Source of the DNA: Cymodocea nodosa
Taxonomy: Eukaryota > Streptophyta > Magnoliopsida > Alismatales > Cymodoceaceae
DNA: 64,000 bases
Direction of reading: 5' to 3'
NCBI GenBank assembly: GCA_036874045.1
Contig: JAZBRI010000004.1
Location: forward strand, 6,200,001-6,264,000
Shown here: piece by piece, positions 15,575-45,199 of the stretch
How the letters are laid out: each line of letters opens with the position of its first letter
How positions within the stretch are numbered: the first letter of the stretch is position 1
Translations under genes and position numbers: made by a program
The notes under the pieces: generated by a model
Database searches by the model: none
What the model saw: only the letters and a program-made list of their open reading frames with translations
Told to the model about the DNA's origin: nothing

Positions 15575-17781
<2,207 letters not shown>

Positions 17782-19089: not shown

Positions 19090-21395
19090 AAAACTGACAA
19101 AATACGTACTTACACACATAGGAAAGATGAAGACCAAAATAAAGAAACGGTGAATGTCAATGTACCAGACTACTCTCGAGTTTGTCGGTTCTTGATAGAT
19201 AATTTCTCAACTTCTCCTTTGCCGTCTACGTAGATCAATTCGGAATCATCATTCTGTGGACGGATATGTGCGGAGAATCCCAATTGTGGGCAATTGATGA
19301 CAAACAAGCTAGAGAAACGTTCGAGTTTGTCTTTTCGCTCCATGTCGGTTTCTCCCAGGAAGCCAACAGATTTCAAGTTATCACAATCTTCAAGCCATAG
19401 TTTCTTATCAAGTGATGGAAGCTTTGGTAGCATCTCCAGAGCTGAACAATATGACACGGACAAATCACCAAGTTTTTCGAAATTGGGGAGCTCCTTTAGA
19501 CCATCACAAGCAACCAAACGTAGAGTCTTGAGTTCAGGGAGCATTGGCAAGGACCTTAGTGCGCCACAATTCTCCACCTTCAATTCCCTTAAAGAAGCAA
19601 AGTTAGGTATTTGCTCTAGCATGGGGCAGTTAAAGCATGTGAAAGTTTTCAATTCTGGGAAATCATTTTCTGTAACATCTGTCCAACTACGTAACTTGTA
19701 AAGCTCGTTGAATATAAGCTCTCGTAGATTTGGAAAAGAAGATTTCGTTCCAGAGCTGCGATCGAATTCAGATCCAATACTTTCTACCTCCATGAGATTT
19801 ATAACAAGTTCTTCAAGTAAAGGAAGTCCGCCCAATGCTGGAAGAGTAACACATTTCTTGCAATTTTCAAGAAATAATTTTTTCACTTCAAAGGAATCAT
19901 CTGCCATCCATTTTGGAAAAGCTGTTCCGTCATATGACTTGACAACTAGGACTTGAAGTTTCTTATGTGGCCGTAGTTTTTCAAAAATCTGGTTTTTATC
20001 ACTGTCATCCTGTGGTACATCTCTGAATGATGAATGCTCGTCACTTTCTTCTACGGTGGTTTCCATTGAATTAAGCATAAAAGGGATGGTATTGTTGTTT
20101 TCCTCAGGCATGAAACTTGAAATTGGATTTCTAATACTTACTTCCTGTGTGCCAATGCTTGCGTTGTCAACAGCCATCGGATTTGTTCCTCTCCTGTCAC
20201 CTTCTTCATCCCACCTTGCATTGGGTGCCTCACTTGTTGACTCTACATTTTCCAAGTTGCTTTCCTTACCGTAAGTCTCATTTGGTGAAACCAAGTCGTC
20301 ATTGAATTCCTCATCGTCCAAGACAATCATTTCAGGAAGAGGCCAAGCTAAGGTGAGTTTTTCGATACTTTCCTTGTTTGCCAAGTCAGCCTCTTCACAA
20401 TCAGAGTAATTGGCCACGTTACACAAGCCCGAAATGCAGAGATCACCTGTAAGTTTTCTCAAATTCTTCAACTCTCTTATCCCAGCAAATCCCTCAGCTC
20501 TACCTACATTGAATATCGGTAGCGTCTGCAATTCGGTTAAGTCCCCGAGCCCGGCTGGCATGCACAAGTTTGTGTCATTGGACATCTCTAGATGGCGTAG
20601 CTTTCTCATGTCTCTTATGTCCTCAGGTAGCTCTTCAAGTCTGCAACAGTCCTTCAATTTCAGTGTCTGTAGATTGTGAGACCCAGTGCAGCTGCATTGT
20701 GGTAACCTCCTAATCTTGGTTCCACTAAGACCAAGGAAATGCAGATGTCTTGAGAGCTGGATAACAGACATGGGGACCTCTTTCAGTTCAGTGTAGCTCA
20801 AATCCAATACTCTTAAGTATTCCAACTTTGGTAATGCAGAGAGATCAATCTTCAAATATGTGAGCCCATCCTTCTTTGGATGATATTTAGGGCATATAAT
20901 AAATGTACGAAGTTTACTTGCTTGACCCTTTTGTTTCCATTCAACCATGTGCTGACCATCGACTGCATACGACAAATGACGATAATCAGTGTGGTTACTT
21001 GTGGAGTTGCAGTAGTCTATTCTCAAGCTTTCTTCGAAAAGTAATCTATTCATAGGCATGCGAAATTGGCCTTCACTTATGTAAAGGAAGAAGGATTGGC
21101 AGCACAACTCGTCAAAGTATTCCTCGCCAATTTTCTCCAACTCCTCTCCACCATTTGGTTGAACGAAACCTTCAGCTATCCATAGCCTGACAAGGGAGTC
21201 TTGGGAGAATATATGGTCTTCAGTAAACAGGGTGCAGTAAGCAATGCAGCGCTTGAGCGGTGCCCTTAGACGACAATAGCTCGCTTTTATGTCGGAGGAA
21301 TCTCCTTGCAGTCCATCTCCATACTTCCATTCAAGGCCGGTAACCGCGACTGAGGCGGCACTCTTGAGGAATGCGGGTATTCCACTGCATCTATT
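19090..21395 (-). repeat. Left arm of a 2.3-kb inverted repeat (within NLR-A)
   Basis: This segment, from 80 bp past the NLR-A stop up to the GLPL region, is repeated in inverted orientation at 23,045-25,342. The arms are 2306 and 2298 bp long. The 8-bp difference is fully explained by one 8-bp deletion in the right arm. About 15 amino-acid differences over about 740 residues suggest roughly 98-99% DNA identity. The spacer is about 1.65 kb. Confidence 0.9.
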
Positions 21396-22382
21396 GATTT
21401 CCTCTCGGGACTCCCACTCCGATGCCACATGTCGCCCTTCAACAGACGCCGAGAACAACTTCCTCGAGGCATCTTCGTCTAAAGGTGTGACGATAAAGCG
21501 CTCAACGCACATTTCCTGGGGCATATTTCCTTCGACAAGGAAGCTTCGGGTGGTAACGAGGACGACACTCTCCTCAAGCTTGGGGGCGAGTGGATTCCAG
21601 AAGCGACACCAGAACTCTTTTCCAGCGTTCCAGACGTCGTCAAGAACGAGAAAGCATTTCTTCCCTTCCAATTCTTCTCCTAACTCGTTTTGCGCCCGTT
21701 GGAGTTCGTTCGAACTGCTGGCCTTCCTGGTCAAGGACTCGTACACGGCCTTTGTCAGCATCAGCTCGTCGTAGTTGTTACGGACGAACACCCAACCGAA
21801 CCGCTGGAAGGTGGTCTTTATCTTTTCATGGTTAAAGATGTGCTGCACGAGGGCGGTCTTGCCGATGCCCGCGGCTCCGACCACGGTGACGATAAACCCT
21901 TTCCTCTTCTCGTCGGTGATAAAGTCAATGATTTCATCCATTATGTCGCCTCTGCCGTAGATCTGGCTGTCGCTAGGAAGAGGACCGGTCGGTTGCCTCC
22001 CCTGCTGCTCCGCTGTCTTTCGTCTCTTTCCGTCTGCTTTTCTGAACTTCAACGCCTTTTCCCTTTTGGCTTCATCCTTACGCTTTGAAGAGATACGTTG
22101 TATCCTATTCTCCAACATTCCCCTATCAATTCCATCGTCATCGGCGTCCAAGTCGGAGATGATGTCCTCGACGTCGTAAGCCATATTCTTGAGTTCCTTG
22201 AGGCGGAGCTTCTCGTACTCGGTCTGGCATGTCTTCGAATCTATAGTGTCGATCTCAGATCTGAGCTGGGACAGCAGTGTTCGTGGGCACAGCGGCTTGC
22301 TGCTGGAGCTGCCGTAGGTTTGGGAGGCCGACGAAGAATCCGACATCGTTTGTGCGTCGACGGTGGTTTGGGAATTTCCCAT
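19170..22382 (-). CDS. NLR-A: CC-NBS-LRR disease-resistance protein, 1070 aa, one exon
   Basis: Intact single-exon NLR starting MGNSQTTVDA. A coiled coil holds an EDVID-type motif (YDVEDIISDLD, about 69-79). The NB-ARC core shows a canonical P-loop GAAGIGKT (169-176), kinase-2 LVLDDVW (245-251), RNBS-B VVLVTTRS (283-290) and RNBS-D CIAYCTLF with LWIAEGFVQP (389-409). Two motifs are unusual: GLPL reads GIPA (about 334-337), and the MHD region reads RMPMNRLLFE (441-450) with no His-Asp. LRRs run from about 515 to 1050 and are interrupted by an acidic, Asn/Ser-rich linker (about 681-798). The family binds ADP/ATP and triggers effector-induced immunity at membranes or in the cytosol. A near-identical inverted partial copy lies at 23,045-25,342. 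Loss of MHD can deregulate NLRs, so an altered switch is possible; that is inference. Confidence 0.92.
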   Translation of the reverse strand: MGNSQTTVDAQTMSDSSSASQTYGSSSSKPLCPRTLLSQLRSEIDTIDSKTCQTEYEKLRLKELKNMAYDVEDIISDLDADDDGIDRGMLENRIQRISSKRKDEAKREKALKFRKADGKRRKTAEQQGRQPTGPLPSDSQIYGRGDIMDEIIDFITDEKRKGFIVTVVGAAGIGKTALVQHIFNHEKIKTTFQRFGWVFVRNNYDELMLTKAVYESLTRKASSSNELQRAQNELGEELEGKKCFLVLDDVWNAGKEFWCRFWNPLAPKLEESVVLVTTRSFLVEGNMPQEMCVERFIVTPLDEDASRKLFSASVEGRHVASEWESREEINRCSGIPAFLKSAASVAVTGLEWKYGDGLQGDSSDIKASYCRLRAPLKRCIAYCTLFTEDHIFSQDSLVRLWIAEGFVQPNGGEELEKIGEEYFDELCCQSFFLYISEGQFRMPMNRLLFEESLRIDYCNSTSNHTDYRHLSYAVDGQHMVEWKQKGQASKLRTFIICPKYHPKKDGLTYLKIDLSALPKLEYLRVLDLSYTELKEVPMSVIQLSRHLHFLGLSGTKIRRLPQCSCTGSHNLQTLKLKDCCRLEELPEDIRDMRKLRHLEMSNDTNLCMPAGLGDLTELQTLPIFNVGRAEGFAGIRELKNLRKLTGDLCISGLCNVANYSDCEEADLANKESIEKLTLAWPLPEMIVLDDEEFNDDLVSPNETYGKESNLENVESTSEAPNARWDEEGDRRGTNPMAVDNASIGTQEVSIRNPISSFMPEENNNTIPFMLNSMETTVEESDEHSSFRDVPQDDSDKNQIFEKLRPHKKLQVLVVKSYDGTAFPKWMADDSFEVKKLFLENCKKCVTLPALGGLPLLEELVINLMEVESIGSEFDRSSGTKSSFPNLRELIFNELYKLRSWTDVTENDFPELKTFTCFNCPMLEQIPNFASLRELKVENCGALRSLPMLPELKTLRLVACDGLKELPNFEKLGDLSVSYCSALEMLPKLPSLDKKLWLEDCDNLKSVGFLGETDMERKDKLERFSSLFVINCPQLGFSAHIRPQNDDSELIYVDGKGEVEKLSIKNRQTRE

Positions 22383-23044
22383 TTGTTGGTGATCAGAACG
22401 ACAACGAAGTGGCTACAGCAAATTAGACTAGAATAAAAGTCGCCGTATTTTCAGAAAAATTAAAAAATCGGTCGCAGGTCATTTTCACTTTTCAGGAGCA
22501 AGAAAAAATTATGAACTGATTCACGATTTTAATCGTTTCCGTAGACAACTCGTCAAATGTTAGTTACATTATTTTTAAAAAAATATATATAAATTATAAA
22601 TTTAAAAATTAAAATTACTTTAACAAATAAATATCACTCTTAAATTTTTACTTTTTTCCTTTAATTTACGATCACAGTATTATTCTGGTCTGAAACTATT
22701 GCATAGACTCTAAAACTAAAATAAATGTAGTTTTAAGAGACCTTTTTAAGAGATTTGATTGAACTTAATCGATTTTTAAAATGTGACCAACTATTTAATA
22801 AGACGTACTTCATTTTTGAAATCTGATTTTCCTGAGTTAATTTTATATGTCAAATGAGTACGAAAATTCATGAAAAATTTACAATATCTTTTAACATGAC
22901 AAGAAAGATTAATTCTATTTTGCTTTTACAGAAGTTCTTGGTCGCACACTTTATTGCATGTAAATACTCCACAATTGGATTGAAACAAGAATTCAGGTAG
23001 ATTTAATGTACATGACTCTACGACCAACCTTTTTTTTAAAAACA
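22383..23044. other. AT-rich spacer upstream of NLR-A
   Basis: This contains the NLR-A 5' region and the junction to the inverted copy. It is AT-rich, with no gene and no clear core promoter box. Confidence 0.5.
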
Positions 23045-25262
23045 AATAGATGCAGGGGAATACCCGCATTCCTCAAGAGTGCCGCCTCAGCCGCGGTTAC
23101 CGGCCGAGAATGGAAGTATGGAGATGGACTGCAAGGAGATTCCTCCGACATAAAAGCGAGCTATTGTCGTCTAAGGGCACCGCTCAAGCGCTGCATTGCT
23201 TACTGCACCCTGTTTACTGAAGACCATATACTCTCCCAAGACTCCCTTGTCAGGCTATGGATAGCTGAAGGTTTCGTTCAACCAAATGGTGGAGAGGAGT
23301 TGGAGAAAATTGGCAAGGAATACTTTGACGAGTTGTGCTACCAATCCTTCTTCCTTTACATAAGTGACGGCCAATTTTGCATGCCTATGAATAGATTACT
23401 TTTCGAAGAAAGCTTGAGAATAGACTACTGCAACTCCACAAGTAACCACACTGATTATCGTCATTTGTCGTATGCAGTCGATGGTCAGCACATGGTTGAA
23501 TGGAAACAAAAGGGTCAAGCAAGTAAACTTCGTACATTTATTATATGCCCTAAATATCATCCAAAGAAGGGTGGGCTCACATATTTGAAGATTGATCTCT
23601 CTGCATTACCAAAGTTGGAATACTTAAGAGTATTGGATTTGAGCTACACTGAACTGGAAGAGGTCCCCATGTCTGTTATCCAGCTCTCAAGACATCTGCA
23701 TTTCCTTGGTCTTAGTGGAACCAAGATTAGGAGGTTACCACAATGCAGCTGCACTGGGTCTCACAATCTACAGACACTGAAATTGAAGGACTGTTGCAGA
23801 CTTGAAGAGCTACCTGAGGACATAAGAGACATGAGAAAGCTACGCCATCTAGAGATGTCCAATGACACAAACTTGTGCATGCCAGCCGGGCTCGGGGACT
23901 TAACCGAATTGCAGACGCTACCGATATTCAATGTAGGTAGAGCTGAGGGATTTGCTGGGATAAGAGAGTTGAAGAATTTGAGAAAACTTACAGGTGATCT
24001 CTGCATTTCGGGCTTGTGTAACGTGGCCAATTACTCTGATTGTGAAGAGGCTGACTTGGCAAACAAGGAAAGTATCGAAAAACTCACCTTAGCTTGGTCT
24101 CTTCCTGAAATGATTGTCTTGGACGATGAGGAATTCAATGATGACTTGGTTTCACCAAATGAGACTTACGGTAGGGAAAGCAACTTGGAAAATGTAGAGT
24201 CAACAAGTGAGGCACCCAATGCAAGGTGGGATGAAGAAGGTGACAGGAGAGGAACAAATCCGATGGCTGTTGACAACGCAAGCATTGGCACACAGGAAGT
24301 AAGTATTAGAAATCCAATTTCAGGTTTCATGCCTGAGGAAAACAACAATACCATCCCTTTTATGCTTAATTCAATGGAAACCACCGTAGAAGAAAGTGAC
24401 GAGCATTCATCATTCAGAGATGTACCACAGGATGACAGTGATAAAAACCAGATTTTTGAAAAACTACGGCCACATAAGAAACTTCAAGTCCTAGTTGTCA
24501 AGTCATATGACGGAACAGCTTTTCCAAAACGGATGGCAGATGATTCCTTTGAAGTGAAAAAATTATTTCTTGAAAATTGCAAGAAATGTGTTACTCTTCC
24601 AGCATTGGGCGGACTTCCTTTACTTGAAGAACTTGTTATAAATCTCATGGAGGTAGAAAGTATTGGATCTGAATTCGATCGCAGCTCTGGAACGGAATCT
24701 TCTTTTCCAAATCTACGAAAGCTTATATTCAACGAGCTTTACAAGTTACGTAGTTGGACAGATGTTACAGAAAATGATTTCCCAGAATTGAAAACTTTCA
24801 CATGCTTTAACTGCCCCATGCTAGAGCAAATACCTAACTTTGCTTCTTTAAGGGAATTGGAGGTGGAGAATTGTGGCGCACTAAGGTCCTTGCCAATGCT
24901 CCCTGAACTCAAGACTCTACGTTTGGTTGCTTGTGATGGTCTAAAGGAGCTCCCCAATTTCGAAAAACTTGGTGATTTGTCCGTGTCATATTGTTCAGCT
25001 CTGGAGATGCTACCAAAGCTTCCATCACTTGATATGGCTTGAAGATTGTGATTACTTGAAATCTGTTGGCTTCCTGGGAGAAACCGACATGGAGCGAAAA
25101 GACAAACTCGAACGTTTCTCTAGCTTGTTTGTCATCAATTGCCCACAATTGGGATTCTCCGCACATATCCGTCCACAGAATGATGATTCCGAATTGATCT
25201 ACGTAGACGGCAAAGGAGAAGTTGACAAATTATCTATCAAGAACCGACAAACTCGAGAGTAG
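23045..25262 (+). pseudogene. NLR-A inverted partial copy, 5'-truncated and frameshifted
   Basis: Homology to NLR-A begins abruptly at AATAGATGCAG (GLPL region), so the coiled coil, P-loop and kinase-2 are absent. The reading frame then follows NLR-A residues about 333 to 1010 and stops at 25,042. There, 8 bp present in NLR-A are missing (after the Ser-Leu-Asp of LPKLPSLD) and shift the frame. The remainder, from IEDCD-equivalent LEDCDYLKSVGFL to the end, stays open in another frame to 25,262. About 15 substitutions separate it from NLR-A in protein, so it is young. It has no promoter of its own that I can see. If transcribed it could give an LRR-only product or pair with NLR-A RNA. Confidence 0.9.
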
Positions 25263-25342
25263 TCTGGTACATTGACATTCACCGTTTCTTTATTTTGGTC
25301 TTCATCTTTCCTATGTGTGTAAGTACGTATTTTGTCAGTTTT
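23045..25342 (+). repeat. Right arm of the 2.3-kb inverted repeat
   Basis: Mirror of 19,090-21,395. Homology extends 80 bp past the former stop codon and ends at GTCAGTTTT, so the copied unit was genomic DNA rather than a processed transcript. I saw no target-site duplication at its ends. Confidence 0.9.
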
Positions 25343-26049
25343 AACAGGAGTTAAAAATCAATGTTGCCAGTAAACTGCATGGGATTAGTTGTAGTCTATG
25401 ACACCACAACTTATGCCATTAGACTTGTCTTGAACACCTCCAGAGACATCCAAAGCTCTCCGAAAGTCTTGCTAACTCCCGATCTGCATTCAAACCCATC
25501 CACGCCTGCAAATAATAAATGCCACAGGTCCTCATTCTTCAAGCAAATATTCTGTGTACACTTGCCCAAGAGAAGCCTATTTTCTGTTTCGGATCTGTAT
25601 CGATATTTTTCCTAAAACAGCCAGAGAGATTGTTATGAATTTTGATCAAGTTTCTGTCGGAAGTAGTTTGTGAAATGACAATATATATATACAGCCCTTT
25701 CCCAGCATAAATCTGTTTCAGGACTTGCAATGTAATTGATATAGCAAGTGTATTTGATCTTCGATGGCATGAGTAAAAATAATCGAGTGTATGATAAGAT
25801 TAAAAAAATCCAATATCAGAAAAGAGGTCCTTTATTTTCTAGGTCTTACAAATGTCTCTTTTACTTCTAGTGAATGTGTACATGCAGATTTGCATCCATT
25901 TGTACATTGACTTTGCTATTACGTTAAAACGTGAATATTCAACTTGATATCATTTGAATATAAGTGATAATGTCCAGTATATAAGTTGAGATAGAAAAAT
26001 TTCTTCTGATCGTATGGATGATACAAGGAATTAAATTCTAATTTCACTT
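25343..26049. other. Spacer, no gene seen
   Basis: Short open frames at 25,361-25,615 and elsewhere have no family features. A short TA run lies near 25,680. The 3' LTR expected for the old Copia element to the right was not found here. Confidence 0.4.
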
Positions 26050-27577
26050 CTATGTGTGGGACTAATATCGTTTGTTTTATTTAGAGAGCTGCCATCCTTC
26101 TATTTCCTTAATGTACTTATCGAGTGAACATCTATTTTTACAAATACTTAATCTCATTTATCGTGTGACTTATAGAACAAACCATGATTATAAATTCCTT
26201 TCACATACTTCGTGATTCTCTTTGCAACTTGCATGTAGGACTACCTTGGATATTAAAGGAACTTATTAATTAAACCAGCTCCATATGAGATATTTGGTCT
26301 TGTATGAGTGAGATATCCAACAATTTGCTTGAAGTACGTAGGATAGAGTAGTGTGTGGTCATCATTTTTTGATAAGTTCACTCCTATTTAATTAGTGTTC
26401 TCGTAGGATTACAATCTTCTATTTGAAACCTTCTCAATAATTGCATAGCATAATATTGTTGACAAACAAAAATGTCATCATTTCCTTGGCGCACCTTCAA
26501 TCCAAGAAAATATGACATGAGTTTAAGATCTGTCATCTCAAACTAGTGAAGCGTTAAGCCTTTAAACTACCCTACCAATTTAATGTTATTTCCTGTAATG
26601 ATTAGATCATCAACATAAAGTCCCACTAATAACAAGTTGTGATCAATTATTACCTTTATATAAATTGTATGATCAGAAGAGCTTCTTTGAAATCCTGCAA
26701 TAAGAAGAAATGAATCCCTACCAAACTTTTGTTCAAAGCCTTGCCTTGCTTTATGCTTCTCAATATCATTATTTGATTTCTTTTTTAATTTTGAAGATTC
26801 AGTTGATGTCATTAGCTTTATGTTGGATAAAAGTTCTATAGGCTGTCATGTTTGATTTCTTTCAATTGCATGCAACTCTTCATGCATGGCTTTCAACCAT
26901 TTCAGATCCTTCAAAGCTTCAATGACAAAGTTAGCTCATAATCAATGAACATCGAAAGGTGCAACAAGTTACCATCATCATTAACTAAATCATTTGAGAT
27001 TACCTCGTAATCACGTAAAATGATTGGTTCTTGTTGTCATTATCTTAGCTACTCAGCATGATTGATTGAGAACTTCTCATGTTCTCAATTGTGACATTAC
27101 TCATGGTGTGGTCTGCATGACTTTCGTCATGTTGCATGTGTTTGTCCAATGCGTGCATTCGAGTTGAGGATTCAAGATCCAGATTGGGAACTCCATTGGA
27201 AGATGGTCATTGTATGCATGCCTCCTCATTTAGTGCATCACGTAACGCACCACATGGGGGTGTTGGTGTCCGACCACCATGCTCTTGAGTAATAATATTC
27301 ATCTCAAGTACATATGGAGGTTGCATGACTTTTTGATTTTGCACCTGACCACTCCAACACCATGTTTCTTATTTACAAATCACCACATCATGACTTACAA
27401 TAACTTTCTTTGTGATTGGATTAAATGACTTATAACCACCACATCACTGACTTACAATAACCTTCTTTGTGATTGGATCAAACAACTTATAACCACCACA
27501 CCTGTAGCCAACTAACATTGTTTTCTCTCCTCCATCATTGGATCTTGTTTGTTTTGGAACATGTACGTGGGCGATTG

Positions 27578-27776
27578 TGTTGGTCTGCGCGGTTTGGGGG
27601 CTCCGATGGTGGATTATTCCAGGTGATCAATACTTTTTGTTATTCACCTCTATTTATAGCATTTGGAGGATTAACTACCTCTACCATCTCTGCCCTCAAC
27701 CTCCTCCTTAATTTCCGGTAACCACCGAAATTTTAATTTGAAACTTGAAACTTAGTCTTTTTGACCAATTCCAACA
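27578..27776 (-). repeat. 3' LTR of the younger Copia element
   Basis: 199 bp, TGTTGG...CCAACA, flanked on the left by the target copy GATTG at 27,573-27,577. Confidence 0.93.
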
Positions 27777-27854
27777 TCTCCTACTTGGTCACAAAGACCA
27801 ACTATATTCTTTTTAATTCCGCTCCCACTACTCGTAGGTAGCATAATTTCAATA

Positions 27855-28350
27855 TTACTCATGAGAATGTTCCATGTTTCCATTATCCATATAAATATTC
27901 CTTAATCCCATTAAGTTTACAAACTTAATGTACTTTTCCGCTGGTATTCCTTTTGTCAAATGATCAGCTATCATATCTTCTGTAGGGATATAATTCAATT
28001 TTATTTCCCCATTTCCTACAATATCACGAGTATAGTGATAATGTATGTTTATATGTTGTCCTTTTATTGTATTTGCACTACTATATACAAGACTTATTGC
28101 TGCTTGGTTATCACAATACATTTCTATTGGACCATTTATTAAGTTTAGATTCAAATCATTTATGAATCTTCTGATCCAAACTGCATGTGATGCGACAGCA
28201 CTACAGGTAACATATTCAGCTTCCTATGTGTATTTTGCTATACACCATTGCTTCCTACTTCCCCAAGATATGGCTGCCCCTCCAAAGATGAATACATGTC
28301 CTGAAGTAGACTTCCCATCATCTTTGTCACCACCTAAATCTGCATCTGTA
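27855..28350 (-). pseudogene. RNase H region of the younger Copia
   Basis: Shows the Copia RNase H hallmarks GYTDADLGGDKDDGKSTSG and YCDNQAAISLVYS. It would degrade the RNA strand of the RNA-DNA hybrid. Part of the broken pol region. Confidence 0.85.
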
Positions 28351-28649
28351 TAACCAAGCACTTCAAGCTCATCTACTTGATAAGTCAATTTATGGTGCAA
28401 AGTTCCTTTTATATATTTCAAAATTCTTTTGACAGCTTCCCAATGTTTTGTTCCGGGATTACTTTGATACCTACTTACAATACTTACAGCATATGCCAAG
28501 TTTGGTCTTGTACACAACATAGCATACATCAAACTTCCAACCACTTGGGCATAAGGTGCTCTTAAAGGTTCCTTCCCTTTCCCAGGACATTGGTCCTTAA
28601 CTTTTTCCCTAAAATATAAGGTGTGGGAGCTGAGGAACAATTGTCCATT

Positions 28650-29430
28650 CCAAACCTTTTTAACACCATTTGCAGGTATCTTTCCTGATTTATACTCAAT
28701 GTTCTTGATTTTCGATCTCTTAAGATTTGAATTCCAAGAACATAGGATGCTTCCCCTATGTCCTTCATTTCAAATTTTCTACTAAGTTCTTCCTTTATTT
28801 CATTCAACATGTCAGCATTATTTCCAGCAAGTAAAATGTCATCCACATATAAGGATAATATAATGAAGTTACTCCCACTATTCCTGACATATACACAGTA
28901 ATCTAATCTGTTTGAAACAAATCCCATTGTGACAATTATATCATGAAACTTATGATACCATTGTCTAAATGCTTGTTTTAAACCATATATTGACTTCTTC
29001 AATTTGCACACTTTTTCCTCATGTCCTTCCACCTGAAATCCCTTAGGTTGTAACATGTAGATTTCTTCCTGCAGGTCTCCATTTAGAAATGCAGTTTTTA
29101 CATCCATTTGATGTAATTCCAAATCTAAATGTGCAACTATAGCCAATATAATTCTTATTGATGCGAATTTAGCAACTGGAGAATATGTTTCATGAAAGTC
29201 AATTCCCGGTTTCTGTGTATAACCTTTAGCAACTAAACGGGCCTTATATTTTTCAATAGACCCATCAACCTTTAACTTTTTTCGGAATATCCACTTGCAC
29301 CCTATAACTTTCCTTCCTTTAGGTAGATCACATAATTCCCACACATGATTCCATTTCATGGAATCAATCTCATCATTCATGGCATCCAACCATAAATCTT
29401 TTTCATGAGATTCGACGACATCCTTATATG
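28650..29430 (-). pseudogene. Reverse transcriptase region of the younger Copia
   Basis: Copia RT signatures are GCKWIFRKKLKVDGSIEKYK, QMDVKTAFLNGDL and the catalytic core LSLYVDDILLAGNN. This segment lies in the longest open piece of the element (28,562-30,166), together with the integrase C-terminus. Confidence 0.9.
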
Positions 29431-29949
29431 TCACAGGTTCCATGTGATTTTCCTCCATGTCTATCATTAAACAAGAAAGCTTACAGGAATACAAATGGTA
29501 GTCATCCATCCATGTCGGCTGATGTCTCATCCTTTTGTTGCTAATAGGTAAATCTGGTTCTCTATCTTCTCCATTTCTATTGTTCTCTTCAATTCTATTT
29601 ATAGGCTCATTTTGGATTTCTCCCATGATTTCCATGGGTTCACGATTGTTTTCATCAGCAATTTCCATAGGTTCATCTATATTTTCAATGTTTCCTTCTT
29701 CTTCAACTCTAGGGTCATTTTCTAGGATATTATTGAAATAGTCATCATTCACCACAAATGGTGGCTCATGTTCCTTTCCTATTTCTTCCTTTTCATTTAG
29801 ATTTTCTAGGAAAGTGGCATCCCTATATTCAATAATTCCCTTTTCTTTACTATAGAACCTATAACCGAAAGAATTTTCACAATAGCCTATAAACCTACAT
29901 TTAAGAGTCTTTGATTTTAACTTATCCCTTAATTGTTTAGGAATAAGTA

Positions 29950-31100
29950 CATGGGCTATAGATCCCCATTTTCTTAAATGATATAAATTGGGCTTAGTTT
30001 CGGTCCATAATTCATAAGGTATGTTAGGTACAGACTTGGAGGGTATTCTATTTAATACATAATTTGCTGTGATCAATGCTTCTCCCCAAAAAACTTTGGA
30101 GAGACCTGAATGTGAAAACATGCACCTAACAGAATTCATAAGAGTTCTGTTCTTTCTTTCTGCCACACCATTTTGTTATGGTGTATAAGGCATTGTAGTT
30201 TATCTTTTAATTCCATGCATTTCACAAAATAATTTAAATTCATTAGAATTATATTCCCCTCCCCTATCTGACCTTAACATCTTAATCCTTCTTCCAAGCT
30301 GTTTTTCTACTTCCAACTTGTATTTCTTAAAACAAGTCAATACTTGACTTTTATGACTTATTAGATAAATGTAAGCATATCTTGAAAAATCATCTATAAA
30401 AGTCACAAAATATTCTTTGTCATCATGAGTTTTAATACTTAATGGACCACATACATCAGAATGAATCAACCCCAATAATTCATCTGATCTATATCCCTTA
30501 CCAAAAGATTTCTTAGTCATTTTCCCAACTAAGCAATGTTGACATTTATTTAATTCCATGTCTTTAATTTTAGGCAACATATTCAATTTTATCAATTGTT
30601 GTATTTTAGATTTATTAATATGTACTAACCTTAAATGCCACAAATCAATATCAGATAAACAACACTCAACATAATCAGAAACTATTTCATTAGCAACGAC
30701 AGAAAGTTTAAACAAATCATGTTCAGTTACAAAAATTCTCATAGCAAAGATCTTTTTGTCTTTTCCTATGGATACACGTTTATTGTAAAATCGAACTTCC
30801 AAATTATTCTTCAAAAGAGTACCTACGGATATTAAATTCTGCCTCATGCTAGGTGCATAGAGGACGTCTTTCAAGATCATAATGTTGTCTCCCAAGTCCA
30901 AACGATATGTGCCAATACCTTCCACATCTAAATAAGTATTGTTTCCCATATAGATGCGTTGTTGTTCAGGACTCAACTTTTTAAATGAGTCAAGTCCCTT
31001 TTTCGTTTTGGCAATGTGCCTTGTGGCACCAGAATCAACCCACCATTCGTTTGAACTAGGGACTACAACATTATTGCATTCCATAACTCCCACGAAGGTT
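29950..31100 (-). pseudogene. Protease and integrase region of the younger Copia
   Basis: The aspartic protease motif WWVDSGATRHI lies near 31,040. The integrase zinc-binding region (LWHLRLVHINKS with CQHCLVGK) and a DDE-type core (SDVCGPL, FIDDFSRYAYIY, LRSDRGGEYNS) follow. Fossil; breaks are not itemised. Confidence 0.9.
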
Positions 31101-31129
31101 CTTTTGTTCTTTATGTTTGACTCCGAGGT

Positions 31130-31933
31130 TCCACCTTTATTTCCATCCCTGTTGGGACAATGTGCCCTAAAATGACCAAATTGGCCACATGCATGGCAAG
31201 ATCCTCGTGCTTTCTTTCCACGTGCTTGATTTTGCTTGAAGTTGTTCTTGTTTGGTCAATTTCTTCTTTTGTTGCATTTTTCAGATCTCTGCTTTTGAAA
31301 TATGGCATTGGCTTCTTCTAAATGAGATTCATGTTGCCTTCGACTGACTATTATTTCTTGTTCAGTACCCAACCTAGCTGGCAATTTAGATAATTGTAGT
31401 GGGGTAGACCTAAGAGATGTGGTAACCATATCATAACTGTGTGGCAAACTATTTAATATGGTTGCTATTTACAATTTTTCTGGTATAGGAGTTTCTACAG
31501 TAGCTAAGTCTTTAGCCATTACCATCATATTATTTACATGTTCCACTACACTTTGTTCCTCTAGCATCCTGCAAGAGTTATATTTCTGAAGGAGCAACTG
31601 TGTATTCATTTCAGTTGCTTTATTATATTTTTCTTTCAAAGCATTCCATAGTCTATAAGCATTAGTATATGTTTCATAGCATTTTACAAGACAATCTTCC
31701 ATGAACATGAACATTAAATTTTTCGCCTTTTTATCATCTTTCCTCCATTGATTTACTCTTTTTATTTCCACTTCAGAAGCGTTTTCACTTATTTCCGGAG
31801 GATGCGAACCTATTACATGTTCAATATCTTCATATTCTAATGCTTGATATATTTTCCAATACCACATTTCATAATTTACCCCATTTAATTTATCCATCCT
31901 TGACAACTCAGTTGTAAACATCTTCGAAGCCAT
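31130..31933 (-). pseudogene. gag region of the younger Copia
   Basis: Begins MASKMFTTELSRMDKLNGVN and shows the UBN2-type gag pattern (NYEMWYWKIYQALE, AYRLWNALKEKYN). The nucleocapsid zinc-knuckle area near 31,150-31,250 is recognisable but decayed. Confidence 0.85.
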
Positions 31934-32039
31934 ACTTATATCTACAATCGAAATTACTTTCCAATTTCAATAAATAATTACCTTATGAATAAAAAATGCA
32001 AATATTAAATTTAAAATTTCAAAAAATCTGAAAAACTAT

Positions 32040-32140
32040 TTGAATTCAAATTTCAAAATTCAAAAATCAAATTTCAATTTCAATTTTCAAATTTTCAAAA
32101 ATATTTAAATTTCCAAATTCAAATTCAAATTACAAATATT
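32040..32140. repeat. AT-rich TTCAAAT-type simple repeat in the Copia leader
   Basis: Many imperfect tandem copies of TTCAAAT/TTCAAAA lie between gag and the GC-rich leader block. Probably replication-slippage sequence of the element's 5' untranslated region. Confidence 0.7.
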
Positions 32141-32319
32141 TCTATTATTTAATTAAAGCATGCAATTTCTAAACATATAATATAAATATAATGACTAACA
32201 TATTTAACAACAACAAAAATTGCATGTTATTATTATTATCCAATATAATATAATATAATATATTATAATATTTTATCAAAAGGGGGAGATTTAGATTATC
32301 TCTAACCAAATCGCCTAAG

Positions 32320-32582
32320 GGTGGAAGACTGGCGATCTGGGTGTGCGCGAGCGGCGGGAGGTGCGCGCGAGCGGGGGTATGCAGCAGCACGGTGGGGGGT
32401 GTGCACGCGGGCTGCGGAGGTGCGCGCGCAGGCTGCAGAGGTTGCGTGCAAGCAGCGAGGGGCGCGCGCGGAAGGACGGAGATGTGCGGGCGGAGCTGCA
32501 GCGACGTGCGTGGAGGACGACGGCCGTGCGCGGAAGGACGGAGATGCGCGGGCGGCGGGACTGGCGGAGCTACCTGCCTCTG
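32320..32582. repeat. GC-rich minisatellite-like block in the Copia leader
   Basis: A 260-bp island, by eye well above 65% GC, in otherwise AT-rich DNA next to the primer site. It is made of diverged repeats such as GGAAGGACGGAGATG(C/T)GCGGGCGG (near 32,470 and 32,530) and GTGCGCGCGAG/GCAGG units. It opens long Arg/Ala-rich frames on both strands, which I take as compositional artefact. Confidence 0.75.
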
Positions 32583-32589
32583 ATACCAC

Positions 32590-32788
32590 TGTTGGTCTGC
32601 ACGGTTTGGGGGCTCTGATGGTGGATTATTCTAGGTGATTAATGTTTTTTGTTATTCACCTCTATTTATAGTATTTGGAGGATTAACTACCTCCACCATC
32701 TCCGCCCCCAACCTCATCCTTCATTTTCGGTAACCACCGGAATTTTAATTTGAAACTTGAAACTTGGTCTTTTTGACCAATTCCAATA
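32590..32788 (-). repeat. 5' LTR of the younger Copia element
   Basis: 199 bp, TGTTGG...CCAATA, followed by the target copy GATTG at 32,789-32,793. The primer binding site abuts its left side (minus-strand downstream). Confidence 0.93.
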
Positions 32789-37064: not shown

Positions 37065-39442
<2,378 letters not shown>

Positions 39443-39860
39443 TGCCCTCCTTGTCCTTGGTGAGATGCGTTTGTCCATTGAGACCGACCATAAAATTATG
39501 TTGCAGCTTATTTGTGCCCTCGGTTTTGTCTTTCCGAATTGGGTATTATGATGGCAATGAACTTTTCACCTTTTCTGTTTTACCACTACGTTGAGTTTTT
39601 GCTTCAAAAAAAAAAAGTTGAATTGATTTGCAGTCAAACGCTTTGGTGCCATTCGCTGCGATGGTTTTAAGCTTCGTTGCTAAAAATATAAGATGCAAAA
39701 TCACGGATTTCAGAGTGATTGTACCGGATGAGTGTGGATTCTGCTATGGTCTGGTATGATGGATTCGGCTGTAGCAAATAAGTGTTTTGTAGCTGTTCAT
39801 TGAAAAGTTTTGAGAAATGTTAGTAATTCATCAGAAAATGGATTATATATCATATGAAGT

Positions 39861-40127: not shown

Positions 40128-40830
40128 AATCCCTCAACTGTACATACATTGAGTATCGGTAGTGTCTGCAATTCGGTAGTGTCCACAAACCTGGTTGGCA
40201 TGTAGACGTACAATAATGTAGAGACTTCAATACTCGTAAGCATTCGAACTTTTGTAATTAATGTAGAGACTTCGATCTTCGAAATTGAGAGTTAACCCTC
40301 CTTTGGATCTTTTTCTTTTTTGGGCGTACAATAAAAGTACGTAGAGTCCTTACTTCATCCTTTTGTCTACATTCAACTTTGTAGTGGCCATTAACTGCAT
40401 ACGACAAGTGGTTAACTATTGTGAAACTGGGTAGATAATTAGCGTTCGCACTTGTGGTCTTGCAATAGTTTATTCTCAAGCACTCTTCGAAACGTAGACT
40501 ATTCTGAGACATACAAAATTACTCGTCACCGATGTAAAGGAGGAAGGATTGGTGGCACAACTCGTCAAAGTGTTCCCTGCCAATTTCCTCCAACTCCTTC
40601 CCACCATTTCGTTGAACGAAACCTTCAGCTATCCATAGCCTGGCAAGGAAGTCTACAGAGAATATATGGTCAAGCGCTGCCGTTTGACGACGGTAGCTCG
40701 CTGTTATGTCGGAGACATCTCCCTGCAGTCCACCTCCGTACTTCCATCCGCGGCCAGTAACCACGGCTGGGGTGGCACTCTTGAGGAAGGAGGGTATTCC
40801 CCTGCATCTATTGATTTCCTCTCAGGACTT
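40128..40830 (-). pseudogene. NLR-B: relic of the NLR beside NACA-2
   Basis: Homologous to NLR-A from the GLPL end (GCATCTATTGATTTCC at about 40,803) through RNBS-D (LWIAEGFVQRNGGKELEEIG) and the post-MHD region (ECLRINYCKTT; LSYAVNGHYKVE) to LRR sequence near 40,128-40,200 (TATCGGTAGTGTCTGCAATTC). It has multiple frameshifts and large internal and terminal deletions, so it makes no NLR. It sits at the same place and orientation relative to NACA-2 as NLR-A does to NACA-1, which shows the pair was duplicated as a unit. Confidence 0.85.
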
Positions 40831-41739
40831 CTTCTCGCCAATCTACCTTTGTTTCATAACAGTTGCAATAATAAGCTGTAGCATGAGACGAAAGATATTC
40901 TTCTGATCGCTTCAATAGATATCAATAAGCACTGATTGACAAGTATAACTACAAAAGATGCATGTGCACCCGCCAGATATCTTAGGCCAGTCACAAATCT
41001 TAAAAATCAAAGATAAGCATATGTTGCATAACTGACTAGCTTGCTAAAAATATCATATATTTTACCAGTGATGTCTTAAGCATAAAACTAAAGCTTTTCT
41101 AACCAAAAACAGTATCTCTTTTCTAGCGATCATATACAACTATCCGAACAACAATTTCGTTTAGATGAAAGTGTAACCAATAACGACATGTAACTTGCAG
41201 TCTATGAACAACGATTTGCAGAAAGGAATACGTTTTCAGTACTGCACGCAAAGGTCCGTAAAAAAACTTTTAGCATGGGTGATTTGCAAAGTCTACATTT
41301 ACATATATATTGTATGTAGCCAACACAAATAATACGAAGACAATCTATGGAAAAATATTTTTATCGAATAAGAACCTATATATTATACACAATATATAAA
41401 ATCATTTATTTAAAAAATTCCAAACACTATAATTAATGGTAATTACATAAATCAATAAGCATAAACAGATATTTTAAACATACTGGCAATGAACATAAAG
41501 TATCTGCTGAATTGCATGCAAAAGAATAAGATAGAAGTAAAAGGAGTGATGTACCATAGTGTCCTCAACGTAACGTTGAAAAATTTTAAAATGACTAATT
41601 TGTTATATATTGATCATCCATTTAAAATGTGAATAATTGTATTTCAAATTAGAATGATACAACTTGTAAAACAATACTAAATGTACCATACAATTTTCTT
41701 GAAAAGTAGCTACAGGTAGGCCGTGAGAAAGATGGCTAC
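40831..41739. other. Spacer between NLR-B relic and NLR-C
   Basis: AT-rich, no gene seen. It probably includes the NLR-C 3' UTR at its right end. Confidence 0.5.
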
Positions 41740-44700
41740 TTATGCATTATTCTGAAACCAAGTGAGAAGCTTTTCTTTGTCAAATGCAATTGGCAATTTC
41801 TTATCGAAGCGAAATGCAAGTGCATGACAGTTAATGACAATAAAACTACCAAAGGGCTCCAGTTTCTTATGTAGATCTGTAGTTGTAGAACAGTTCACCA
41901 AAAGATCAAGTGATTTGAGCTGGTCGCAATCTTCAATCCAAAGATTTTTCAACAATGGTAGTTCTGACACAGATACAAGTGACTTGCAGTACATGACGGT
42001 TAGATTATGAAGCTCTTTAAGGCTGGGAAGTTTAACTAGTTCATCACATGCAATCAACCTTAAGGTTTGAAGCTTGGGAAATTCAGGCAATGCTTTTAGT
42101 GACCAACAATTTTCTATCTCCAATGTTTTCAGAGAAACAAAGCAAGGTATGCCCCCCAACTTTGGACAATTAAAGATGGTACAAGTTTCAAGCTCTGGGA
42201 AATCAACATCTCTAACACCAGTCCACTTTTCCAGTTCATATAGCTGTTTAAAACATAGTTCAAGTAGTTTTGGGAAACACTTCTCATGTTGAGGATCTTC
42301 AACGTCAAGGCAAAACTCATGTTGGATAGATCTTATAAACATGTGATCTATTGTCAGGTATTTCAATGATGGAAGTAGTCCCAATGATGGCAGTTGGTCA
42401 CAGTTTTTGCAATATTTAAGAGTCACACTCCACAAGTTGGTGAAGGATTTGTCTCCCAACCATTGTGGGAAGACAGTGCCATGGTATGATTGCACTATGA
42501 GTATCTTAAGATTGTTATTTGGTTTGAGGTTTTCCAACACCTGCGCAACATGCTCTGGTGTCTGTTCTGGTGTAGCACAGAAACTTGAATTCAAGGTATC
42601 CACTCCTCTAGCGATTTCCATCAACTCTGGCTCGAGATCAGTTGTGTTTGATTGGTCGTCAACAAGCAATTGCCTCTCATCTGACGTGATCTCTCCCACG
42701 GCAGTTGTATGGGGTACAATATCCACTTCACTGTAAGGCAGTTCTCGATCTTGTAGATTCATTTCCTCAGAGTCATCATCAGAAAGTTTCTCATCATAAT
42801 CATCATCATCAGTTTCTTCCTTATGTTGTTTGCCCACATGAGAAGACCAGTCTAAGGTGAGTTTTTGAATAAATTGTTTGGATTCCAAATTAGCCACTTT
42901 ACAGTCATCAACATTATTCACATTACAAAGTCCTGAAATGTTAAGTTCTCTTCTGATCTTTCCCAAACCCCTTAACTCCTTGATCCCAGCATATCCATCA
43001 GCTTGAGACACATTAAATCTTTGGAGTGTTTGCAGTTCAACCAATTCCCCAAGCTTAGCTGGCATACAAAAGTTACAATTGCTATCAACACGCAAATGGC
43101 GCAAACTTGTCATGCCTCTCATATCTCTAGGTAACTCTTCAAACTTAAGACAATTCATCAATTCCAATGTTTGCAGATGTTTAAACATATTTATGGAATC
43201 TGGCAATGTTCTTATTGCAGTGCCATTGAGACCAAGGAAGCGTAGCTGTTCCAAGTTGCCAATGTACTCAGGCAACTCTTCTAAGTCACTGTAGCTGAGA
43301 TCCAAAGTTTGTAGATTATAAAGCTGGCGCGTGGAATCTGGAAGAAGTCTAACTCCGGTGCCGAAAAGTCCAAGGAAACGTAGATGCTTTAGATCACCCA
43401 ATGAATCAGGCAACTGTCTTATGTCTATGTAGCACAAATACAATGTTCGTAGGTAGTTCATTCTCGACAAAAGAGAAAGGTCAATCTGTGATTTACATTC
43501 ATTCGATATGATAATAAAAGTACGAAGCCTTTTCGCTTGATCTAGCAACTCACCTTTGATCTCATTGTTATGATTTTGAACCACATATGATGCATGACGA
43601 ACATGAGAGAAGGCGTGGGTTGCATTATCACCCATTATCCTGTGGTGTTCTGATCCTCTTGAAGTGGAATTAGTGGATTTCAGGGTATCATAAAGCCGAA
43701 AAGGAATCACATGTCGATCATCTTTAAAGAATTGGAAATAAAATCTGTACAAAAGTTTCTCAAAATACTTCGAACCAATATCTTCAAGTGTGTCTGTGCC
43801 AGCCTTTGGGTGAATGAAACCCTCTGCAATCCAAAGCCTTATAAGTTGTTGCTTGTCAAATTCATGATAATCAGGGAATAAGGAACAATAAGCAATGCAG
43901 CGCTTTAAGGGTGCTTTCAAACCATAGTAACTTGATTTCAAATCTCGTAGAATATCATTCAGGATCTCTCCATTCGAGAGCGCTTCAATCCACTTTCTCT
44001 TTTTTGGATGAACATGATCCTTCACAGAGAATGGAAGGCCTTTACATTTGATAGTTTGATCGATCATTGGCAGCTCTTCCTTTAGACGATCCAAGACGAG
44101 AGGATAGGCAAATTCTATAGAGAGTTGGTTCTTTTTCATTTTTTCAATAACTTTGTAATCTTGGGTAGTAATCACAACCACACCGCCTTTCTCCACAGAA
44201 GCTAGAGTGTTCCATAAGCTTTCCCATTTACCATTCTTAGTCCAAACATCAACCGGAATATCAACGAGAACAATCAAGAACCTCTTTCCATCTAGCAGCT
44301 GTCTCAATTCTTCCTGAATACCAATCAATTCCTTGGAAATAGACGAGCTCAGAGCTAAGGATTCGTAAACAGCCTTCGCAAGCTTCAGCTCATCGAAAAC
44401 ATCAGACATGGACACCCAACCCCTCAATTGGAAGTGATTATCAACCTCGAAATTACGAAACACATGTTGGGCAATTGTGGTTAGATCAATACCAATGCCA
44501 GGAGGGCCCACAACTGGAAAGATGACGATTTGCTTGAAATCTCTTGTTATCGATTCGATAATAAGTTTTATATATTCATCCATACCAACGACAATCCGTT
44601 GCTTATCCGGAATCGATCCCGTGGGTTGCTTGCAACAGCTGTTATTCCTAAGCTTCCCTTCCCATTCATGTATCTCTAGAGATTTCGACCGGTGCTTCGA

Positions 44701-44988
44701 ATCTTGGTACTTTTTCAAAATTTCCTTCATCTTCTTCTGTATAGCCGGCCATTGAGAATCACCGGAACTAGAAGAAGTTCGTACTAGCCACTCACAGTCG
44801 GCGATGGCGTCCTCGGCGTCGAATGCGATATCCTTTAGGGTTTTGACTCTTACAAGTTCGGAATGGGATTGGACGGACTTCGACTCGATCTGGTCGACCT
44901 CTAACCAAATTTCCCGAAGATTATCCTTCAGATCATCGAAGGTATCCTTGGCTTCCAGCGGAATTGGCGGCGAAGAGGTAGTAGCCAT
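41740..44988 (-). CDS. NLR-C: CC-NBS-LRR protein with degenerate nucleotide-binding motifs, 1082 aa
   Basis: Single open frame. I start at MATTSSPPIPLEAKD (44,988) because the further upstream frame is a poly-Lys run from a T tract. The coiled coil has an EDVID-like AFDAEDAIADCE (55-66). The P-loop reads GPPGIGIDLTT (161-171): the conserved Lys is replaced and two extra residues are present. Kinase-2 reads VLVDIPVDVW (240-249), with three residues splitting the Asp pair. GLPL is GLPF (317-320). RNBS-D (CIAYCSLF, LWIAEGFIHP) is normal. The MHD region reads IPFRLYDTL (428-436). LRRs run from about 510 to 1050, with an acidic linker at about 716-815. The frame is otherwise intact over 3.2 kb, so selection may still hold it, perhaps as a nucleotide-independent sensor or partner NLR. 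An ageing pseudogene without stops is the alternative. Confidence 0.88.
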   Translation of the reverse strand: MATTSSPPIPLEAKDTFDDLKDNLREIWLEVDQIESKSVQSHSELVRVKTLKDIAFDAEDAIADCEWLVRTSSSSGDSQWPAIQKKMKEILKKYQDSKHRSKSLEIHEWEGKLRNNSCCKQPTGSIPDKQRIVVGMDEYIKLIIESITRDFKQIVIFPVVGPPGIGIDLTTIAQHVFRNFEVDNHFQLRGWVSMSDVFDELKLAKAVYESLALSSSISKELIGIQEELRQLLDGKRFLIVLVDIPVDVWTKNGKWESLWNTLASVEKGGVVVITTQDYKVIEKMKKNQLSIEFAYPLVLDRLKEELPMIDQTIKCKGLPFSVKDHVHPKKRKWIEALSNGEILNDILRDLKSSYYGLKAPLKRCIAYCSLFPDYHEFDKQQLIRLWIAEGFIHPKAGTDTLEDIGSKYFEKLLYRFYFQFFKDDRHVIPFRLYDTLKSTNSTSRGSEHHRIMGDNATHAFSHVRHASYVVQNHNNEIKGELLDQAKRLRTFIIISNECKSQIDLSLLSRMNYLRTLYLCYIDIRQLPDSLGDLKHLRFLGLFGTGVRLLPDSTRQLYNLQTLDLSYSDLEELPEYIGNLEQLRFLGLNGTAIRTLPDSINMFKHLQTLELMNCLKFEELPRDMRGMTSLRHLRVDSNCNFCMPAKLGELVELQTLQRFNVSQADGYAGIKELRGLGKIRRELNISGLCNVNNVDDCKVANLESKQFIQKLTLDWSSHVGKQHKEETDDDDYDEKLSDDDSEEMNLQDRELPYSEVDIVPHTTAVGEITSDERQLLVDDQSNTTDLEPELMEIARGVDTLNSSFCATPEQTPEHVAQVLENLKPNNNLKILIVQSYHGTVFPQWLGDKSFTNLWSVTLKYCKNCDQLPSLGLLPSLKYLTIDHMFIRSIQHEFCLDVEDPQHEKCFPKLLELCFKQLYELEKWTGVRDVDFPELETCTIFNCPKLGGIPCFVSLKTLEIENCWSLKALPEFPKLQTLRLIACDELVKLPSLKELHNLTVMYCKSLVSVSELPLLKNLWIEDCDQLKSLDLLVNCSTTTDLHKKLEPFGSFIVINCHALAFRFDKKLPIAFDKEKLLTWFQNNA

Positions 44989-45097
44989 GAGGTTGGAGGC
45001 AGCAGATCGGCCGAAGAAGAACGGTACAGAAAGCCAGAAGGTCGTATCGTCCGCAGCCTCTACCCACACTGTGGTTATCCGTGTCCTCCTTGAACTT

Positions 45098-45101
<4 letters not shown>

Positions 45102-45126
<25 letters not shown>
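45102..45126. repeat. Poly-T tract upstream of NLR-C
   Basis: About 25 T in the presumed NLR-C 5' leader. It creates a spurious poly-Lys extension of the reading frame. Confidence 0.9.
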
Positions 45127-45130
<4 letters not shown>

Positions 45131-45199
45131 CTAGTAAAATAAGGGTTAAAATTTCTTATATAAAAATATATATTTATTTTCAATTGATTTTAGAAATTA

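What the first reader, a model, noticed from the sequence alone, without database searches (positions are those of the whole stretch)
19090..25342. 2.3-kb near-identical inverted repeat made from an NLR
NLR-A's 3' two thirds are repeated head to head, with arms of 2306 and 2298 bp differing by one 8-bp deletion and few substitutions. A transcript reading leftward through both arms would fold into a very long hairpin, a known source of 21-24-nt siRNAs in plants. Such siRNAs could silence NLR-A and its relatives, a natural self-regulating arrangement for a costly immune gene.
Basis: partly seen in the sequence, partly recalled or inferred. Interest (0 to 1): 0.75.

Follow-up and report, generated by a model that had tools for sequence, protein, structure and literature searches.

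The report
Inverted half-copy of an immune gene
A plant immune-receptor gene sits next to an upside-down, nearly identical copy of its own last two thirds; this could make the gene silence itself through small RNAs, but the DNA alone shows only the copy, not the silencing.

Summary
Arm A (19090-21395) and arm B (23045-25342) are inverted copies, 98.74% identical: 21 substitutions and one 8-bp deletion. The 1,649 bp between them hold NLR-A's 5' third and an intergenic region. Arm A is the original, colinear with an open 1,080-codon NLR frame and with a paralogous segment. Arm B is a partial copy without NB-ARC, inserted about 0.66 kb upstream of NLR-A's start codon and flanked by a 4-bp AACA repeat.

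The hairpin reading is possible but not shown. No clear silencing footprint was found: the CpG fall misses the arm edge, and 1 of 20 differing codons is synonymous (P 0.008, post hoc). One weak hint the other way: CG/CHG excess among transitions (P 0.035). NLR-B is too diverged for silencing.

Most likely a young DNA-repair duplication in an NLR cluster: a new member of a known kind, worth small-RNA mapping.

The parts
19090..21395 (-). Arm A: 3' two thirds of NLR-A (winged helix, LRRs) plus about 80 bp past the stop codon; the original copy
   Evidence: colinear with the NLR-A ORF and with the paralogue at 40.1-40.9 kb
23045..25342 (+). Arm B: inverted partial copy, 98.74% identical, 21 substitutions, one 8-bp deletion
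21396..23044 (.). Spacer, single-copy in the window: NLR-A 5' coding part (to codon 339, NB-ARC) plus an AT-rich intergenic region; would be the hairpin loop
19170..22412 (-). NLR-A open reading frame (1,080 codons stop to stop, first ATG about 22382): NB-ARC, winged helix, R13L1-type LRRs
22964..25042 (+). Open frame through arm B (692 aa stop to stop; in-frame ATG at 23006): winged helix and LRRs only, C-terminus lost by the 8-bp frameshift
22383..23044 (.). Shared upstream region between the divergent copies; TATA-like words on both strands
23041..23044 (+). AACA, left member of a 4-bp direct repeat flush with arm B
   Evidence: chance about 0.005 from local composition
25343..25346 (+). 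AACA, right member of the 4-bp direct repeat
17136..17781 (+). NAC-alpha exons (NAC and UBA_HYPK domains), convergent with NLR-A; possible source of rightward read-through through both arms
27578..32788 (-). Ty1/copia element reading leftward towards the repeat, LTRs 92.4% identical; ends and candidate 5-bp TSD GATTG read by eye
26169..26911 (-). 3' part (RT, RNase H) of an older copia interrupted by the younger one; its integrase part lies at 33040-34003
40128..40878 (-). Decayed NLR-A paralogue fragment used as outgroup, in the segmental duplication 36.7-40.9 kb
   Evidence: 4 stop codons in the piece 40228-40878 read in one frame
41740..45189 (-). NLR-B, distant relative (about 35% protein identity to NLR-A), second outgroup

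Best explanation
This is a recent local inverted partial duplication. The last two thirds of NLR-A were copied and inserted, upside down, about 0.66 kb upstream of the gene's start codon, most likely as filler in the repair of a staggered DNA break. Arm B lacks the NB-ARC half and is most likely a truncated, non-signalling copy. Its likely present effect is passive: usually silent, able to yield hairpin siRNAs against NLR-A only when a transcript reads through the whole locus, leftward from the copia side or rightward from NAC-alpha. Shown: anatomy, which arm is original, low divergence. Inferred: repair origin, young age, lack of protein function, conditional siRNA output.
For: Sharp ends on both arms and a spacer that is single-copy in the window. 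Arm A continues in frame into NB-ARC and its paralogue matches for 17-24 bp past the arm edge in DNA and to codon 318 in protein, whereas arm B's flank does not. AACA repeat flush with arm B, chance about 0.005. 0.91% divergence against 7.6% between the copia LTRs. Divergent orientation. No CpG break at the arm edge: change point 21250, support 21215-21338, edge 21395; NLR-B also falls from CpG-rich 5' to CpG-poor 3', at another place. Of 6 transitions polarised by the paralogue, C/G lost 2, gained 4. The cluster also holds an unrelated near-identical tract, 16894-18049, so local copying occurs here.
Against: Arm B's frame is still open for 692 codons, which is not yet the look of a dead copy, although at this divergence few stops are expected. 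8 of 15 transitions sit at CG or CHG cytosines against 28% of cytosines (P 0.035), a weak hint of methylation. The repair origin rests on a 4-bp repeat. Conversion between the arms could make an old pair look young. No expression data exist here.
Confidence: 0.6

Rival explanations
1. Active hairpin locus: read-through RNA folds into a 2.3-kb duplex, Dicer-like enzymes cut it into 21-24-nt siRNAs, and these lower NLR-A by RNA cleavage or DNA methylation.
For: Near-perfect arms, 1,865 of 2,278 shared 21-mers; leftward copias on the right and rightward NAC-alpha on the left; CG/CHG excess among transitions, P 0.035. Precedents, passages read: soybean I locus, two rice inverted pseudogene pairs with siRNAs and a loop of 1,283 nt in the illustrated one, maize Tpd1.
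Against: Divergent orientation; the upstream leftward units found within 9 kb are old copias; no CpG scar at the arm edge; excess amino-acid change, mostly assigned to the NLR-A side, unlike a gene long silenced unless it is simply relaxed. In the Mu killer study the flanking-gene read-through RNAs were sense and were not the silencers.
Confidence: 0.2
2. Sequence reservoir or switch: the arms recombine. Gene conversion moves variants between them, and crossing-over inverts the spacer, joining the CC/NB-ARC half to arm B's LRRs instead of arm A's. Not exclusive of the other readings.
For: Arms of 2.3 kb at 98.7% identity in inverted orientation are good substrates for recombination (established knowledge, recalled). 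Arm B is in frame with NLR-A codon 340, so the flipped gene would stay open to 25042. 19 of 20 differing codons are non-synonymous, P 0.008. A clear conversion-like tract exists nearby.
Against: Substitution spacing is not significantly clustered (scan P 0.066, KS P 0.054), so no conversion tract is shown within the arms. Only one orientation is seen. Flipping would cost the C-terminus.
Confidence: 0.12
3. Arm B is expressed from the shared upstream region as a winged-helix-LRR protein that binds effectors or NLR-A as a decoy or regulator.
For: Open frame of 692 aa with an in-frame ATG at 23006 and TATA-like words upstream; fewer changes assigned to arm B (3) than to arm A (12), partly by eye.
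Against: No NB-ARC, lost C-terminus; no evidence of a promoter beyond AT-rich words.
Confidence: 0.05
4. Assembly artefact or haplotype mis-join.
For: Not testable here; no reads and no genome held.
Against: 21 scattered differences plus an 8-bp indel, distinct clean breakpoints and different flanks.
Confidence: 0.05

Closest known systems
Soybean I locus (CHS1-3-4 inverted clusters; PMC3804491, passages read)
   Same: Natural inverted duplication of plant genes; two 10.91-kb arms with 5.87 kb between
   Different: There siRNAs and silencing in trans are shown and whole gene clusters are duplicated; here one arm is a truncated NLR and no RNA is known
Rice inverted pseudogene pairs with hairpin siRNAs (PMC2708354, passages read)
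   Same: Adjacent inverted partial copies; loop of 1,283 nt in the illustrated pair, similar to 1,649 here
   Different: Stems of 185 and about 155 bp against 2.3 kb here; there both copies are pseudogenes, and for the illustrated pair no small RNAs were detected from the parent gene
Maize Mu killer (PMC3440606, passages read)
   Same: Partial inverted duplication (about 1.3 kb) of a gene beside host genes, proposed hairpin from read-through
   Different: Targets a transposon; that study found short antisense RNAs, not flanking-gene read-through, with silencing
Inverted-duplication origin of NLR-targeting miRNAs (review PMC10575705, passages read)
   Same: Inverted repeat of part of an NLR gene is the proposed starting point
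   Different: MIRNA foldbacks are short and imperfect (PMC3414853, passage); this one is long and nearly perfect, the stage before any miRNA
Maize Tpd1 hairpin (PMC11390486, passages read)
   Same: Long natural plant hairpin
   Different: Non-coding, its RNAs target another gene (Tdr1), and 22-nt RNAs are shown

Membership tests
Endogenous plant long-hairpin (hpRNA) locus | Long near-identical inverted arms around a short spacer | tested here: met
Endogenous plant long-hairpin (hpRNA) locus | One transcript containing both arms | not testable with these tools
   no RNA data; orientation alone does not provide it
Endogenous plant long-hairpin (hpRNA) locus | 21-24-nt siRNAs mapping to the arms | not testable with these tools
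   no small-RNA data
Endogenous plant long-hairpin (hpRNA) locus | Target sequences that the siRNAs would match | tested here: met
   NLR-A itself 1,865 of 2,278 exact 21-mers; NLR-B none with 0 or 1 mismatch
MIRNA gene | Short imperfect foldback; match to a known RNA family | tested here: not met
   2.3-kb near-perfect arms; 0 Rfam matches at gathering threshold in the window
Foldback or TIR transposon | Target-site duplication outside the outer ends of both arms | tested here: not met
   bases next to the outer ends at 19089 and 25343 show no direct repeat (by eye); the left flank holds old segmental homology up to about 18.3 kb
Retrocopy | Poly(A) at the 3' end of the copy and TSD of usual length | tested here: not met
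   no poly(A) after 25342; only a 4-bp repeat flush with the ends
Head-to-head NLR pair (RGA4/RGA5, RPS4/RRS1 type; recalled) | Two full-length divergent NLRs | tested here: not met
   the arm-B frame has no NB-ARC or Rx_N hit
CC-NB-ARC-LRR receptor (NLR-A) | NB-ARC, winged helix and LRR domains above curated cut-offs | tested here: met
   best solved relative is RPP13-like protein 4 (6j5t), E 1e-35
CC-NB-ARC-LRR receptor (NLR-A) | Rx-type coiled coil and MHD motif | tested here: inconclusive
   no Rx_N hit for NLR-A, weak sub-cut-off hit for NLR-B; MHD position degenerate by eye (motif recalled)

The most novel reading that the evidence does not exclude
One locus with two coupled properties: an invertible NLR whose CC/NB-ARC half can be joined by recombination to either of two diverging LRR halves, and whose inverted arms, when read through from NAC-alpha or copia, make hairpin siRNAs against the same receptor, so that diversification and dosage control come from one rearrangement.
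Probability: 0.04. Interest if true: 0.85.

Novelty: new member of a known kind. Interest (0 to 1): 0.4.

Why it matters
Inverted partial duplications of NLR genes are the proposed birth stage of NLR-targeting small RNAs (review passages), and this looks like a young example with an open parent gene in cis. If siRNAs exist, the locus would let one test directly whether such regulation arises as a by-product of duplication and whether it lowers the cost of an immune receptor. If not, it shows that even a nearly perfect 2.3-kb inverted repeat of an NLR can sit in a genome without silencing it.

Tried and rejected
Methylation scar: CpG o/e is 1.11 in the spacer part of NLR-A and 0.59 in the arms, which looked like RNA-directed methylation confined to the arms. 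Rejected: the change point lies at 21250, 145 bp inside the arm, with support 21215-21338 excluding the edge; NLR-B also falls 5' to 3', with a change point near codon 156 and wide support. Kept as a weak hint the other way: 8 of 15 transitions at CG/CHG cytosines, P 0.035; CG alone 4 of 15, P 0.11.

Conversion within the arms: 9 of 21 substitutions lie in the first 333 bp next to the spacer, but not significantly (scan P 0.066 for 350-bp windows, higher for 100, 200 and 600; KS P 0.054).

miR482/2118/472 sites: best penalties 9.0-10.5 with recalled miRNA sequences and a simple scheme of my own; none convincing.

Rfam: 0 matches at gathering threshold.

Mapping changes on a model: AlphaFold gave mean pLDDT 39.4 with 3 sequences; not used, no fold search run.

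Whole-genome search: none held. The tools offer no plant collection, so relatives outside the window could not be examined; the bacterial, phage, plasmid and viral collections were not searched, as unsuitable for a plant NLR.

Synonymous test: P depends on counting. 1 of 20 codons gives 0.007-0.045 over ts/tv weights of 1 to 6; 2 of 21 sites gives 0.026-0.124; leaving out the two sites past arm B's frameshift, at weight 5, 0.015 and 0.050; simulation with the observed 15:6 ts:tv gives 0.008. It was chosen after seeing the list, so it is a lead.

Polarity: the two outgroups disagree at codon 355, where the decayed fragment has arm B's state and NLR-B has arm A's residue; I counted it by the fragment, the closer relative.

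Literature: nine full-text searches; among the rows listed (lists are capped), no title or abstract beginning was about a long natural inverted repeat made from an NLR gene and making siRNAs. Most subscription papers are not held.
Full report
WHAT IS THERE. The inverted repeat is real in the sequence and the coordinates are right. Self-comparison gives 19090-21395 against 25342-23045 in opposite orientation, 98.74% identical, with 21 mismatches and one 8-base gap; the repeat finder gives the same arms to within 5 bases, split at the gap. The gap is a loss of bases in arm B corresponding to 19400-19407. The spacer is 1,649 bp. NLR-A is an open frame of 1,080 codons on the minus strand, 22412-19170, with NB-ARC, winged-helix and R13L1-type LRR domains above Pfam cut-offs and RPP13-like protein 4 (6j5t) as best solved relative. 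The arms hold 741 of these codons. Arm B carries an open frame of 692 codons on the plus strand with winged helix and LRRs but no NB-ARC; the 8-bp loss shifts its frame near the end.

WHICH ARM IS THE ORIGINAL. Arm A. NLR-A is colinear with NLR-B from codon 27 to 1046. A second, older segmental copy (15.2-18.3 kb against 36.7-40.1 kb, followed by a decayed NLR fragment at 40.1-40.9 kb) matches arm A and continues past the arm edge, to 21412 or 21419 in DNA by two settings and to codon 318 in protein. Arm B's flanks match neither. The bases AACA stand at both ends of arm B, flush with the copy (chance about 0.005 from local composition). There is no poly(A) after 25342 and no direct repeat next to the outer ends of the pair (by eye), so it does not look like a retrocopy or a foldback transposon. 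A break repaired with a copied filler is the simplest origin; this is inference.

AGE. Arms differ by 0.91%, the copia LTRs by 7.6%; with recalled rates of 6.5e-9 to 1.3e-8 this gives about 0.35-0.7 and 3-6 million years. Conversion between arms would make the first figure too low. Copying of that kind seems to occur here: tract 16894-18049 in the NAC-alpha segment differs from its copy at 38556-39710 by two substitutions and one indel, while the 17 steps of 150 columns outside the tract are 39-92% alike, 12 of them 73-92% (the lowest may be misaligned). Within the arms themselves the substitutions are not significantly clustered.

PATTERN OF CHANGE. All 21 substitutions fall in NLR-A's frame, in 20 codons; 19 codons differ in amino acid and one is synonymous. 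A simulation with the observed 15:6 ts:tv gives a mean of 6.1 synonymous codons and P 0.008 for one or fewer; site-level counts are weaker, 0.026-0.124. The test was chosen after seeing the data. Polarised by the decayed fragment, arm A changed at 8 sites, arm B at 1, with 2 ambiguous in that alignment (P 0.039). Adding NLR-B on the protein alignment by eye gives 12 to arm A and 3 to arm B (P 0.035); at codon 355 the two outgroups disagree; 5 of the 20 codons were synonymous or not assigned. The open gene is the faster side. This fits diversifying selection on an expressed receptor, import of variants from another copy, or relaxed constraint. Some arm-A changes depart from residues shared by arm B and NLR-B, which would suit relaxation.

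COULD IT MAKE A HAIRPIN RNA. By sequence, yes: 1,865 of 2,278 21-mers of arm B are exact in arm A; the longest uninterrupted run is 440 bp. By orientation, not by default: the copies diverge from a shared 0.66-kb region, so both local transcripts would be sense. A hairpin needs an RNA through the whole 6.25 kb. Two candidates exist. On the right, a copia at 27578-32788 lies inside an older copia, both reading leftward. In the Mu killer paper, read-through from the flanking gene was sense and not the silencer (passages), a caution for both.

FOOTPRINTS OF SILENCING. None that is convincing. The CpG fall along NLR-A does not coincide with the arm edge. Of 15 transitions, 8 are at CG or CHG cytosines against 28% of cytosines (P 0.035), a weak hint for methylation; but of the 6 transitions that could be polarised by the fragment, 2 lost and 4 gained C/G. 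Targets: NLR-A itself strongly; the decayed fragment at 40 kb moderately (255 of 2,278 21-mers with up to 3 mismatches); NLR-B hardly (25 of 2,278, none with 0 or 1). So silencing of 'relatives' is not expected for the one other open NLR in this window.

RECOMBINATION. Arm B is in frame with NLR-A from codon 340. Crossing-over between the arms would turn the spacer round and give a receptor of about 1,005 residues with arm B's LRRs (arithmetic). Nothing here shows that it happens.

COMPARISON. Natural gene-derived inverted repeats that make siRNAs are known: soybean I locus (passages), rice inverted pseudogene pairs with a loop of 1,283 nt in the illustrated one (passages), and the maize Tpd1 hairpin, which is non-coding (passages). 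NLR-derived inverted repeats are the proposed start of NLR-targeting miRNAs (passages of a review). Perfect hairpin transgenes tend to methylate and silence themselves, and mismatches lessen this (passages), which would be one fate for this locus. The structure is thus a new member of a known kind; membership among active hairpin loci is untested because transcript and siRNAs could not be examined.

VERDICT. Observation confirmed; mechanism plausible but unsupported beyond anatomy; adaptive reading unsupported. Interest 0.4, as a clean and apparently young test case.

Noticed in passing
16894-18049 and 38556-39710: NAC-alpha-bearing tract of about 1.16 kb with 2 substitutions and 1 indel inside segmental copies that are otherwise 39-92% alike per 150-column step: a likely gene-conversion tract.
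   Followed up: partly
26169-34003: Nested Ty1/copia elements: a younger one (27578-32788, LTRs 92.4% identical, candidate TSD GATTG by eye) inside an older one whose RT/RNase H and integrase parts lie on either side.
   Followed up: partly
41740-45189: NLR-B's P-loop region reads GPPGIGIDLTT, without the usual lysine (motif recalled), and the MHD position is degenerate in both NLRs (by eye).
   Followed up: no
23030-23056: Just before and into arm B there is a run of eight T followed by GATGCAG|G, which could serve as a splice acceptor for a rightward transcript (by eye).
   Followed up: no
2274-4540: DDT- and PHD-bearing reading frames on the minus strand (WHIM1 just below its cut-off), a chromatin-protein gene; a GrpE-like exon lies at 9177-9692.
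   Followed up: no
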